Shown here: in pieces, positions 50,544 through 53,082 of the stretch
Numbering within the stretch: position 1 is the stretch's first letter
Layout: every line of letters begins with the position of its first letter
From: Bradyrhizobium jicamae
GTDB taxonomy: Bacteria > Pseudomonadota > Alphaproteobacteria > Rhizobiales > Xanthobacteraceae
Length of the DNA stretch: 64,000 nucleotides
Direction: 5' to 3'
Assembly (NCBI RefSeq): GCF_018130695.1
Contig: NZ_JAFCJX010000003.1
Span: 186,001-250,000 of the forward strand
Notes under the pieces: generated by a model
Told to the model about the DNA's origin: nothing
Databases searched by the model: none
Seen by the model: the letters and a program-made list of their open reading frames with translations, nothing else
Translations under genes and position numbers: made by a program

Positions 50544-50849
50544 ATGACTGCCAAGACCACCATCAGTTCGCTCGTTCTCGCCGGCGCCGTCTCGACCGCG
50601 CTCGCCACGCTGGCCGCGGCCGGCCCGCTCACCAAGGCCGAGGCCGATGCGGCCGCCGCGGCCAAGAAGGAAAAATGTTTCGGCGTCGCCCTGAAGGGCC
50701 AGAACGATTGCGCCGCCGGACCCGGCACCACCTGCCAGGGCACCTCGACGGTCGATTTCCAGGGCAACGCCTGGAAGTTCGTGCAGGGCGGCACCTGCGC
50801 CAGCATCGATCTGCCGAACGGCAAGAAGGGCTCGTTGAAGCCAGTCTGA
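50544..50849 (+). CDS. bufA1: Bufferin precursor, DUF2282 family (BufA1-type)
   Basis: This encodes 101 residues from the ATG at 50544 with AGGAG 8 nt upstream. Residues 1-26 are a signal peptide (cleavage near AAAG). The mature part has four cysteines at 45, 56, 64 and 85 in the family pattern [27 protein letters not shown] and [10 protein letters not shown]2282 proteins are the precursors of bufferins, peptides whose Cys become thiooxazoles and which bind copper in the periplasm. The MNIO enzyme, its partner and a DoxX protein follow at once, which makes this identification firm. No metal-binding data can be read from the sequence. Confidence 0.9.
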
Positions 50850-50892
50850 CATCGACGCAACCATCACGACGCTGGAGAGGCGGAGGAACAAC

Positions 50893-51801
50893 ATGAACGC
50901 AGCGATCAGGCCCCTCACATCTGCGCCCATGCCCCGCCGCTATTCCCTCCCGATCGGCGGCGTCGCGGGAACGAGCTTCAAGCATGAGCACCTTCCCGCG
51001 ATCCTCGAAGACGGGCCGCAGCGCGGCTTCTTCGAGGTCCATGCCGAGAACTACATGGGCGCCGGCGGGCCGCCGCACCGCGCGCTGGAAACGATCCGGA
51101 AGGATCATCCGATCTCCCTGCACGGCGTCTGCATGTCGATCGGCGGACCGGCACCGCTCGACCGCGCGCATCTTGCGCGCTTCAGCGGGCTCGTGGCCCG
51201 CTACCAGCCCGCGCTGGTCTCCGAGCATCTGGCGTGGTCGACCCATGAGACCAGCTTCTTCAACGATCTGCTGCCGCTGCCCTACACCAAAGCGACGCTC
51301 GACCGCGTCTGCGATCATGTCGACGAGATGCAGGAGGCGATCCGGCGGCCGATCCTGCTGGAGAATCCATCGACCTATGTCGCGTTTCGCGAATCCACGA
51401 TGAGCGAGACGGATTTCATCCGCAGCGTCGCCGCGCGCACCGGCTGCGGCCTGCTGCTCGACATCAACAACGTATTCGTGTCGGCATCCAATCACGGCTT
51501 TTCCGCTTTGGACTATCTCGCCGATTTTCCGCTCGCTGATGTCGGCGAGATTCATCTGGCCGGCCACGCCGCGCAGGCCGATGACGAAGGTGAGCTGCTG
51601 CTGATCGACAGCCATGACGGCCCGGTGTCCGACGCGGTGTGGAAGCTGTACGAGATCGTCGTCGCCCGCCGCGGCGCCGTGCCGACCTTGATCGAGTGGG
51701 ACAGCCAGATTCCGGACTGGCCGGTCCTGCGCGCCGAGGCTGCAGCCGCCCAAGCTATCCTCGATCGCCACCAGGCTGCGGGGGCGCGTCATGCCGCTTG
51801 A
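50893..51801 (+). CDS. bufB: Multinuclear non-heme iron oxidase (MNIO, DUF692), BufB
   Basis: This 302-residue TIM-barrel enzyme starts at the ATG at 50893 after GGAGGAA. Likely iron ligands follow the family order: FFEVHAENY, SLHGVCMSIGG, VSEHLAW, LLENPSTY, LLDINNV, EIHLAGH, DSHDGPV and LIEWDS. MNIOs oxidise peptide cysteines; in bufferin systems they form thiooxazole rings on the precursor. It lies 43 bp behind bufA and overlaps the DUF2063 gene by 11 bp. All ligand motifs look intact, so the enzyme should be active. Confidence 0.93.
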   Translation: MNAAIRPLTSAPMPRRYSLPIGGVAGTSFKHEHLPAILEDGPQRGFFEVHAENYMGAGGPPHRALETIRKDHPISLHGVCMSIGGPAPLDRAHLARFSGLVARYQPALVSEHLAWSTHETSFFNDLLPLPYTKATLDRVCDHVDEMQEAIRRPILLENPSTYVAFRESTMSETDFIRSVAARTGCGLLLDINNVFVSASNHGFSALDYLADFPLADVGEIHLAGHAAQADDEGELLLIDSHDGPVSDAVWKLYEIVVARRGAVPTLIEWDSQIPDWPVLRAEAAAAQAILDRHQAAGARHAA

Positions 51802-52573
51802 GCCGCACATCTCCTATGCCGCGGACTTCGCCGCGGCACTGCTGGATCCGGCACGGCCGGCACCGTCGCTCGTCACCGGACCGAACGGCAAGGCGGCCGC
51901 CCGGCGCTACGACGTCTATCGCAACAACGTCACGGTCAGCCTGATCGCGGCGCTCGCGGCGATCTACCCGGCGGTGCAGCGCATCACGGGCGCGGATTTC
52001 TTCCGCGCCATGGCGCGCTTCCATCTGCGCGAGACGCCGCCGACTTCGCCGCTGCTGTTCGACTATGGCCGCGACTTTCCGGCCTTCATCGAACGCTACC
52101 CGCACGCGCAAGCGCTGCCGTGGCTGGCGGACGTCGCACGGATCGAGCGCGCCTGGCTGGACGCCTATCACGCCGCCGATGCCAGCCCGCTTCCGCCGGC
52201 CGCGCTCGCTGGAATCGCGCCGGACCAATTGGCCGGCCTGACATTGACGCCGCATCCGGCGGTGCGGATCGTGCGATCGCCATTCTCGACCGTGACGATC
52301 TTTGCCGCCAACCGCGCCGACGGGCCGGTGCACCGCATCGATGCATCGGCGGCGGAAGACGCGCTGATCACGCGGCCGGAGTTCGACGTCGTCGTGCGGC
52401 TGTTGCCGCCGGGCGGCGCGACATTCGCGAGCGAGTTGATCGCCGGGCGCAGTCTTGGCGATGCCGCGGCCAGTGCGCTGGACGAGACGCCCGATTTCGA
52501 CATCGCCGCCGGTATCGCCGGCCTGATCGACGCCGGCGCATTCACATCGGTCCTTCCAGGAGATGCAGCATGA
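51791..52573 (+). CDS. bufC: MNIO partner protein (DUF2063), BufC
   Basis: This 260-residue protein starts inside bufB (11-bp overlap). The N-terminal DUF2063 domain (about 5-100) has RRYDVYRNNVTVSLIAALAA and TGADFFRAMARFHLRETPPT. A C-terminal region (about 150-250) resembles the RiPP-recognition part of these proteins. In characterised bufferin operons the DUF2063 protein binds the precursor and delivers it to the MNIO. Family annotation as DNA-binding is misleading. The stop overlaps the DoxX start (ATGA), so all four genes are coupled or closely spaced. Confidence 0.91.
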   Translation: MPLEPHISYAADFAAALLDPARPAPSLVTGPNGKAAARRYDVYRNNVTVSLIAALAAIYPAVQRITGADFFRAMARFHLRETPPTSPLLFDYGRDFPAFIERYPHAQALPWLADVARIERAWLDAYHAADASPLPPAALAGIAPDQLAGLTLTPHPAVRIVRSPFSTVTIFAANRADGPVHRIDASAAEDALITRPEFDVVVRLLPPGGATFASELIAGRSLGDAAASALDETPDFDIAAGIAGLIDAGAFTSVLPGDAA

Positions 52574-53082
52574 TCTCGGAGCAACGCATCACGATGACGG
52601 ATGGCCCGTCGCTCGTGCATCTCATTGAAAAAGCCAATCGGCTGGTGCAGGCGATCGCCTCGCCCTCGATCGCGCAGCTGGCGTTGCGCGTTGCCCTGGC
52701 GGTGCCATTCTGGCGCTCCGGCATCCTGAAATGGGATGGATTTCTCAGGCTGAGCGAGACCGCCGTGACGCTGTTCAGCGACGAGTTCATGCTGCATCTG
52801 CCGGGCGGCCCCTATCATTTCCCGGCGCCGGCGGCGACAGCGTTCCTGTCCGGATCGGGCGAGATCCTGTTTCCGATCCTGCTGGTGCTCGGCCTCGGCA
52901 CGCGCTTCGCCGCACTCGGCCTGCTCGTCATGACCGTCATCGTCGAGCTGACGGTGCCTGATGGCTGGCCGGTCCACATCACCTGGGCCGCGATGGCGCT
53001 CGGCATAATGTGCTGGGGGCCCGGACGCTTCGCATTGGACCATGTGATTGGGCGAGTGGTCGGAGACCGTAGGGCGGATTAG
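52570..53082 (+). CDS. bufD: DoxX-family membrane protein, BufD
   Basis: This encodes 170 residues from the ATG at 52570, overlapping bufC by 4 bp. Four membrane helices are predicted, with VPFWRSGILKWDGFLRLSET and FLSGSGEILFPILLVLGLGT characteristic of DoxX proteins of MNIO operons. The role in bufferin export or membrane redox support is unproven. The final codons and stop (CGT AGG GCG GAT TAG) are supplied by an intergenic repeat that begins at 53069, so the natural C-terminus has probably been replaced by repeat sequence. Confidence 0.9.
   Translation: MISEQRITMTDGPSLVHLIEKANRLVQAIASPSIAQLALRVALAVPFWRSGILKWDGFLRLSETAVTLFSDEFMLHLPGGPYHFPAPAATAFLSGSGEILFPILLVLGLGTRFAALGLLVMTVIVELTVPDGWPVHITWAAMALGIMCWGPGRFALDHVIGRVVGDRRAD

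What the first reader, a model, noticed from the sequence alone, without database searches (positions are those of the whole stretch)
50544..53082. Complete four-gene bufferin (MNIO RiPP) operon
The window encodes a DUF2282 precursor with four cysteines (45, 56, 64, 85) behind a signal peptide, then an MNIO/DUF692 enzyme with its likely iron-ligand motifs, a DUF2063 partner and a DoxX protein. bufB/bufC and bufC/bufD overlap. Established knowledge: homologous operons make thiooxazole-bearing, copper-binding peptides. This copy looks intact and would be a Cys-modified exported metallophore-like peptide of this organism.
Basis: partly seen in the sequence, partly recalled or inferred. Interest (0 to 1): 0.75.

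Follow-up and report, generated by a model that had tools for sequence, protein, structure and literature searches.

The report
Bufferin operon with shared stress promoter
A soil bacterium (Bradyrhizobium) carries an ordinary, intact set of four genes for a copper-binding modified peptide; the less ordinary part is its on-switch, which looks shared with a distant gene pair for an oxidative-stress regulator.

Summary
Observation confirmed. 50544-53082 holds four intact genes: a DUF2282 precursor with four Cys, a bufferin-type MNIO with its iron ligands, a DUF2063/PME1 partner and a DoxX protein. It is a Buf1 bufferin operon, a published family; 125 of 265 genomes of its genus (this one included) hold DUF2282. 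One detail is wrong: thiooxazole costs about 4 Da per modified Cys, not per pair, and only the two central Cys are expected to be modified.

Here the sigma/anti-sigma pair (EcfF-OsrA type) is unlinked. Just upstream lies a palindrome, TCACG-N4-CGTGA (50438-50451), conserved in alphaproteobacterial bufA promoters. In this genome palindrome plus GTAAC occurs three times; two are bufA and ecfF-nrsF. All 30 Bradyrhizobium ecfF promoters fetched carry it. Outside Bradyrhizobium, sigma promoters lack it, and a class-wide scan was not above its control. I found no description of the palindrome in the papers searched; no regulator is identified. The operon is known; the shared composite promoter is the modestly new, testable part.

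The parts
50437..50452 (.). Perfect 16-bp palindrome CTCACG-N4-CGTGAG (core TCACG-N4-CGTGA, 50438-50451), candidate operator; only exact copy of CTCACGNNNNCGTGAG in the held genome
50463..50488 (+). ECF16/SigF/EcfF-type promoter: -35 GTAAC (50463-50467), 17-nt spacer, -10 CGAA (50485-50488)
   Evidence: published consensus in PMC3511200 and PMC3420878
50544..50849 (+). bufA: DUF2282 (Buf1) bufferin precursor, 101 aa, signal-peptide-like N-terminus, Cys 45/56/64/85
50893..51801 (+). bufB: MNIO bufferin maturase, 302 aa, iron ligands and catalytic Asp present
51791..52573 (+). bufC: DUF2063 partner protein with the fold of full-length PME type 1 proteins, 260 aa
52570..53082 (+). bufD: DoxX-family membrane protein, 170 aa; its stop codon lies inside a dispersed genomic repeat

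Best explanation
This is an intact Buf1-type bufferin operon of a Bradyrhizobium. Inferred mechanism: an ECF16 sigma factor, most likely this genome's EcfF released by stress from its unlinked anti-sigma factor OsrA/NrsF, transcribes bufABCD from the GTAAC-N17-CGAA promoter. BufC (DUF2063 + RRE) presents the precursor to BufB in the cytoplasm; BufB's multinuclear iron site oxidises Cys56 and Cys64 to 5-thiooxazoles (about -4 Da each); the signal peptide sends the peptide to the periplasm, where Cys45 and Cys85 form a disulphide and the thiooxazoles bind excess copper. The palindrome TCACG-N4-CGTGA just upstream of the -35 box is probably the binding site of a second, unidentified regulator that in this genus also acts on ecfF-osrA. 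Shown here: genes, ligands, Cys, BufC fold match, conservation of promoter and palindrome, and their sharing between the two unlinked operons. Inferred: the chemistry, the copper binding, the EcfF dependence and the second regulator.
For: Profile matches to every expected family, BufB over the bufferin-specific cut-off. Four Cys in 80 of 80 precursors and ligands in at least 80 of 81 BufB. The BufC model (mean pLDDT 90.2) has three PDB matches at E <= 0.001: TglI twice and NGO1945/3dee. GTAAC-N15-17-CGA in 74 of 80 bufA upstreams against a mean of 0.74 (largest 4) in dinucleotide shuffles, and 0 of 80 inside bufB. In 28 Bradyrhizobium-set rows with 17-nt spacing GTAAC and CGA are constant by selection, but the A after CGA is constant too (28 of 28) while the spacer varies. 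In Caulobacter SigF controls both DUF2282 operons, and copper raises the SigF regulon (passages of PMC3511200, and PMC8224329); for S. meliloti a table links RpoE7 (ECF16) to SMb20530-20527 (PMC6180224), and an S. meliloti pSymB copy has the palindrome (9 of 10) 11 nt before GTAAC. One NrsF gene in the genome, with an ECF sigma gene before it, on another contig; its two Cys, 132 and 182, sit about where OsrA has 129 and 179. Palindrome + GTAAC: 3 places in the genome, two of them ecfF-nrsF and bufA, 0 in the reversed-pattern control; 30 of 30 ecfF promoters fetched from the genus, this genome's included.
Against: No experiment on this strain. The EcfF motif given for B. japonicum has c or t before CG(t/a); bufA has g there. 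The published EcfF table (PMC3420878 Table 3, seen) names no DUF2282 or DUF692 gene; I could not tell whether that strain carries the operon. In S. meliloti promoter fusions of rpoE7 and SMb20530 did not respond to H2O2, Cd or chromate (PMC6180224). BufC and BufD score under the HvfC (35 vs 142 bits) and HvfX (56.4 vs 80) cut-offs and BufA under the BufA2 cut-off (22.6 vs 60); I read these as sister families. Seven of 80 upstreams lack the composite. In non-Bradyrhizobium loci 22 sigma promoters (found in 29 loci with a sigma match) do not show the palindrome (best core score 4-7 of 10). A class-wide scan for the strict composite found 5 places outside Bradyrhizobium against 6 for the reversed control: no enrichment there.
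Confidence: 0.8

Rival explanations
1. The palindrome is not a regulator's site but an inherited accessory part of some ECF16 promoters (for instance an upstream contact for RNA polymerase), with no second regulator.
For: It stands at a nearly fixed distance from the -35 box at bufA (16-mer end to GTAAC 9-12 nt in the Bradyrhizobium set, mostly 10-11 elsewhere) and occurs with ECF16 promoters at ecfF too.
Against: It accompanies few GTAAC sites (3 composites in the genome, against 402 loose GTAAC-N15-17-CG(A/T) matches); 22 sigma promoters in other taxa lack it; its distance differs between bufA (core end to GTAAC 10-13) and ecfF (15-17); a palindrome with two 5-base arms suits a dimeric protein (inference).
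Confidence: 0.3
2. The operon is driven by a different ECF sigma factor than EcfF, or by several.
For: EcfF dependence was not tested; the -10 element differs by one position from the published EcfF consensus; a second ECF16 sigma, EcfS, is mentioned for B. diazoefficiens (PMC6180224); I did not list all ECF sigma genes of this genome.
Against: Only one NrsF gene in this genome, and NrsF in 251 of 251 good genomes of the genus; the motif is of the ECF16 kind.
Confidence: 0.25
3. The peptide's main job is not copper buffering but protection against oxidants or other metals.
For: EcfF-OsrA responds to H2O2 in B. japonicum (PMC3420878); Caulobacter SigF-dependent genes respond to dichromate (PMC3511200).
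Against: A Caulobacter sigF mutant is copper-sensitive and the SigF regulon rises with copper (PMC8224329); bufferins are reported to chelate copper (PMC12452194).
Confidence: 0.2
4. The operon is decayed or silent in this strain.
For: One relative (L013) has an in-frame stop early in bufB, so decay occurs in the genus; bufD ends inside a repeat.
Against: All four frames are open, ligands and Cys intact, promoter present.
Confidence: 0.05

Closest known systems
Buf1 (DUF2282) bufferin operons of Caulobacter (CC3254-CC3257 and CC2907-CC2905)
   Same: DUF2282 precursor, MNIO and DUF2063 partner in both, DoxX in CC3254-3257; GTAACC-N16-CGAA promoter (passages; family description).
   Different: The sigma/NrsF genes are not next to the operon here; one DUF2282 gene in this genome instead of two; no palindrome mentioned in the main text of PMC3511200.
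S. meliloti SMb20530-SMb20527 with rpoE7-ecfR7 (ECF16)
   Same: Same operon; GTAAC-N17-CGAA promoter; palindrome core 9 of 10 at 11 nt from GTAAC in a pSymB copy.
   Different: Sigma and anti-sigma genes are divergent and adjacent there, unlinked here.
EcfF-OsrA regulon of Bradyrhizobium japonicum
   Same: Same kind of sigma/anti-sigma pair with two Cys in the anti-sigma protein; promoter of the same class.
   Different: The published table names methionine sulphoxide reductases among others, no bufferin operon; palindrome not mentioned in the main text.
Captophorins with repeat precursors (fontiphorin, oxazolin, gonophorin)
   Same: MNIO + PME1 chemistry giving 5-thiooxazoles; bufferins are counted in the same proposed class (PMC13097082).
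   Different: Those precursors have EGKCG repeats; this one is DUF2282.

Membership tests
Buf1 bufferin operon | DUF2282 precursor with four conserved Cys | tested here: met
Buf1 bufferin operon | N-terminal Sec signal peptide on the precursor | tested here: inconclusive
   Read from the sequence only (hydrophobic stretch, then A-A-A at 24-26; A26 and P28 conserved in 79 and 80 of 80); no signal-peptide predictor was run
Buf1 bufferin operon | MNIO of the bufferin maturase family with iron ligands and catalytic Asp | tested here: met
   NF050167 378.1 bits over 310; ligands conserved
Buf1 bufferin operon | DUF2063 + RRE partner (PME type 1) | tested here: met
   Pfam DUF2063; whole-length fold match to TglI and 3dee; 260 aa, the length given for full PME1 proteins. 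The RRE part is taken from the fold match, not tested alone
Buf1 bufferin operon | Order bufA-bufB-bufC(-bufD) | tested here: met
Buf1 bufferin operon | 5-thiooxazole on the two central Cys | not testable with these tools
   needs mass spectrometry and NMR
Buf1 bufferin operon | Copper binding and protection | not testable with these tools
   needs experiment
Buf2 (BufA2) bufferin | BufA2 profile over cut-off | tested here: not met
   22.6 bits, cut-off 60; the two precursors of the genome's other cluster, L001, meet it (83.3 and 76.8 bits)
ECF16 (SigF/EcfF) regulon member | GTAAC-N16/17-CGA(A) promoter at a conserved place | tested here: met
ECF16 (SigF/EcfF) regulon member | Transcription depends on the sigma factor | not testable with these tools
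   needs a deletion strain

The most novel reading that the evidence does not exclude
A still unnamed DNA-binding regulator recognises TCACG-N4-CGTGA and joins the ECF16 sigma factor at bufferin-1 promoters of alphaproteobacteria; in Bradyrhizobium the same regulator also controls the sigma factor's own operon, so that an accessory copper-buffer operon is wired to a core stress sigma factor through a shared two-part switch.
Probability: 0.45. Interest if true: 0.5.

Novelty: new member of a known kind. Interest (0 to 1): 0.35.

Why it matters
The operon itself adds one more member to a family of thousands (PMC12452194). The promoter result gives a direct test: it predicts that a patchy copper-buffer operon (DUF2282 in 122 of 251 good genomes of the genus) answers to a core sigma/anti-sigma pair (NrsF in 251 of 251), and it hands over a 14-bp bait for finding the unknown second regulator.

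Tried and rejected
Rejected: Buf2 or oxazolin-type membership. Rejected: a known RNA element near the operon (0 Rfam matches at gathering thresholds in 50000-53600). Not supported: recent plasmid origin; no plasmid record covers 80% of the operon at DNA level (18 records with partial matches). Considered and dropped: that the palindrome is a TetR operator as might serve the E. coli plasmid copies; in the one such copy examined the stretch between the tetR-type gene and bufA has no TCACG-N4-CGTGA (best 7 of 10). Considered and dropped: a CRP-type site; its arms point the other way (CRP consensus recalled, no call). A first count of ecfF promoters gave 13 of 30 because the script ignored the minus strand; corrected to 30 of 30. 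Third composite site in the genome, L088: no bufA, sigma or nrsF match near it, not pursued. The loose GTAAC pattern alone is not significant within the window (3 matches; 27 of 100 shuffles reach that), nor in the whole genome (199 forward and 203 reverse against 913 and 923 for the reversed control); only its place and conservation matter. A search to learn whether B. japonicum bll6527, blr7741 or bsr4431 are bufferin genes led nowhere. A search for solved structures of relatives of BufA and BufC by sequence found none at E <= 1.
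Full report
WHAT IS THERE. The window lies in an unnamed 8.68-Mb genome (66 contigs). The best hits of the named contig scan are Bradyrhizobium (82-84% identical in BufB for the first five), so I call it a Bradyrhizobium by that evidence. NCBIfam: BufB 378.1 bits over a cut-off of 310; the best matches of BufA (BufA2, 22.6 vs 60), BufC (HvfC, 35 vs 142) and BufD (HvfX, 56.4 vs 80) stay under their cut-offs. I take these models to describe sister families, which fits a Buf1 operon.

MORE THAN CHANCE. In these, tblastn finds bufA in 79, bufC in 80 and bufD in 80; the one without bufA, L033, begins at bufB. 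All 80 precursors compared (window plus 79) have exactly four Cys, at the same columns; the iron-ligand residues are conserved in at least 80 of 81 BufB. The short row among the 81 is L013, whose bufB has an in-frame stop early in the gene.

METAL SITE AND PARTNER. Passages of PMC8888699 name VcMbnB ligands His55, His91, Glu135, Asp165, Asn168, His194, Asp209 and Glu238, add His211, and identify Asp240 (Asp242 in RrMbnB) as the general base. By motif and spacing these are H77, H112, E157, D190, N193, H221, D239, E268, H241 and D270 here. The alignment to the MbnB chain 7fc0_E pairs H77 with a His and D270 with its Asp242. Passages of PMC13419390 report that HvfB variants at N175, D242 and H244 were inactive; I take these to be N193, D239 and H241 here (inference). 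BufC, modelled from 31 sequences (mean pLDDT 90.2, pTM 0.85), has only three PDB matches at E <= 0.001: TglI twice and NGO1945/3dee, both MNIO partner proteins according to PMC12452194.

CHEMISTRY. A figure legend of PMC12452194 states that in Buf1 the central Cys are modified and the outer two form a disulphide. PMC13097082 localises -4 Da to each modified Lys-Cys motif of fontiphorin. The bufferin-1 paper itself (Leprevost et al. 2024) was not read; I know it through these papers.

PROMOTER. Upstream of bufA lies GTAACG...CGAA with 17 nt between GTAAC and CGAA (50463-50488). Published ECF16 motifs are GTAACC-N16-CGAA for Caulobacter SigF, which controls DUF2282 operons there (PMC3511200), and GTAAC(g,a)-N14-15-(c,t)CG(t,a) for B. 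japonicum EcfF (PMC3420878). Within 300 nt upstream of bufA, 74 of 80 sequences (window plus 79 loci) carry GTAAC-N15-17-CGA, at -68 to -88. Single-base shuffles average 0.8 and dinucleotide shuffles 0.74, each with at most 4; a same-length stretch inside bufB gives 0 of 80. Controls on the same upstreams: read backwards 7, reverse complement 20; at least 12 of these 20 are the divergent sigma gene's own promoter (same sequence). Related sequences are not independent: after removing similar upstreams by shared 8-mers, 45 of 51 remain positive. The pattern by itself is common and not enriched in window or genome.

SIGMA FACTOR IN TRANS. Within the fetched flanks (up to 6 kb, less at contig ends) 33 of 80 loci have an NrsF match and 30 a related sigma match. 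None of these is among the 30 loci of what I call the Bradyrhizobium set (29 Bradyrhizobium and one MAG titled Afipia; with the window 31 sequences). In this genome the only NrsF gene, preceded by an ECF sigma gene, is on contig C5, while the operon is on C23. Across the genus NrsF is in 262 of 265 genomes (251 of 251 good ones) and DUF2282 in 125 of 265 (122 of 251), this genome included.

THE PALINDROME. Aligning the Bradyrhizobium-set upstreams showed a conserved CTCACG-N4-CGTGAG just before the -35 box. I found it by eye in those sequences, so their scores (30 of 30 promoters with at least 9 of 10 core bases) are no independent test. Less dependent tests follow. (a) bufA promoters outside the set: 43 of 44 score at least 8 of 10 within a 4-nt range of distances, against about 0.2% of shuffles given the same range. 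(b) Composite of promoter and palindrome (at least 8 of 10): 73 of 80 upstreams, mean 0.01 and at most 1 in dinucleotide shuffles; misses are L034, L041, L070, L072, L074, L076 and L084; 44 of 51 after removing similar upstreams. (c) Exact CTCACGNNNNCGTGAG: one place in 8.68 Mb, this promoter. (d) TCACGNNNNCGTGA-N6-24-GTAAC: three places in the genome, namely bufA, ecfF-nrsF and L088 (no bufA, sigma or nrsF match there), 0 in the reversed control. (e) ecfF promoters: 30 of 30 loci fetched (the best 30 by NrsF similarity from 60 genomes, this genome's own included) have at least 9 of 10 and a GTAAC-N16-CGAA promoter. (f) The pattern of (d) occurs in 244 of 265 genus genomes, its reversed control in 23 of 265 by my count of the table; of the 30 loci fetched there 20 are ecfF, 5 bufA and 5 neither. 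Genomes without a DUF2282 match, such as G008, G009 and G010, still have it at ecfF.

AGAINST A WIDER CLAIM. In loci outside the Bradyrhizobium set, 22 sigma promoters (found in 29 loci with a sigma match) lack the palindrome (best core score 4-7 of 10). A scan of 385 alphaproteobacterial genomes for the strict composite found 8 places in 7 genomes, 5 of them outside Bradyrhizobium, against 6 for the reversed pattern: no enrichment. None of those five lies by a bufA match; three lie beside an ECF sigma gene, one with that gene downstream and two divergent from it. So sharing with the sigma gene is shown for Bradyrhizobium only. The distance also differs: core end to GTAAC is 10-13 nt at bufA in the Bradyrhizobium set and 15-17 at ecfF, which may place the palindrome on another face of the helix.

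LITERATURE ON THE PALINDROME. The words inverted repeat and palindrom- and the two arms, looked up in the main text of PMC3420878, PMC3511200 and PMC6180224, gave nothing on it. A full-text search for the palindrome written four ways and for 'bufferin promoter' and 'bufferin operon' returned one paper, PMC13038864, for the last term only; the one passage seen is unrelated. A search for ECF16, promoter, inverted repeat and DUF1109 listed four papers; of these I looked into PMC3420878 only. The library lacks most subscription journals, so this is no proof of absence.

SECOND CLUSTER. The genome's other MNIO locus (L001) has two tandem BufA2-type precursors (83.3 and 76.8 bits over 60), a BufB (384.6 over 310) and a DUF2063 protein. 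It shows no exact palindrome core, and a GTAAC without the full motif upstream of the first precursor, in line with PMC12452194's statement that sigma genes go with Buf1 and not Buf2 clusters.

PAPERS, AND HOW MUCH OF EACH WAS SEEN. PMC12452194: abstract, sections 4 and 18, the first two of four parts of the results, passages. PMC13097082: abstract, first of four parts of the results, passages. PMC3420878: passages and section 9. PMC3511200, PMC8224329, PMC6180224, PMC8888699, PMC13419390 and PMC13038864: passages only (43; 44, 70; 42, 48; 37; 76).

VERDICT. An ordinary, intact member of a known family, with a conserved composite promoter that ties it to an unlinked stress sigma factor. The promoter is the part worth an experiment.

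Noticed in passing
window 53068-53158: Dispersed palindromic repeat directly after bufD (77 matching rows in the genome on both strands, many places counted once per strand); bufD's stop codon lies inside it, and its last residues differ from relatives.
   Followed up: partly
L001 (G000:C12): Second MNIO cluster of the genome with two tandem Buf2-type precursors.
   Followed up: partly
window 48131-50236, minus strand: Divergent neighbour is a dCache + class III adenylate/guanylate cyclase gene; a similar gene is found in the fetched flanks of 26 of 30 Bradyrhizobium-set loci and in one other locus, L068. Whether it matters to the operon is unknown.
   Followed up: partly
L158, 3033-6403 (E. 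coli plasmid NZ_CP127851): A complete DUF2282-DUF692-DUF2063-DoxX operon with a TetR-type gene upstream on a conjugative E. coli plasmid; 60 Escherichia and 17 Klebsiella plasmid records match BufA. The words plasmid and TetR do not occur in PMC12452194's main text.
   Followed up: partly
L013, bufB: In-frame stop early in bufB of Bradyrhizobium sp. 141, with bufA, bufC and bufD matches present.
   Followed up: no
L088 (G000:C33:78445-78484): Third palindrome + GTAAC site of the genome, with no bufA, sigma or nrsF match nearby; a similar sequence occurs in G067.
   Followed up: no
genus loci L122, L134, L142, L143, L145: A recurring 25-base form of the composite (TCACG-N4-CGTGA only 6 nt before GTAAC) in many genus genomes, not next to bufA or the sigma gene; nature not examined.
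   Followed up: no
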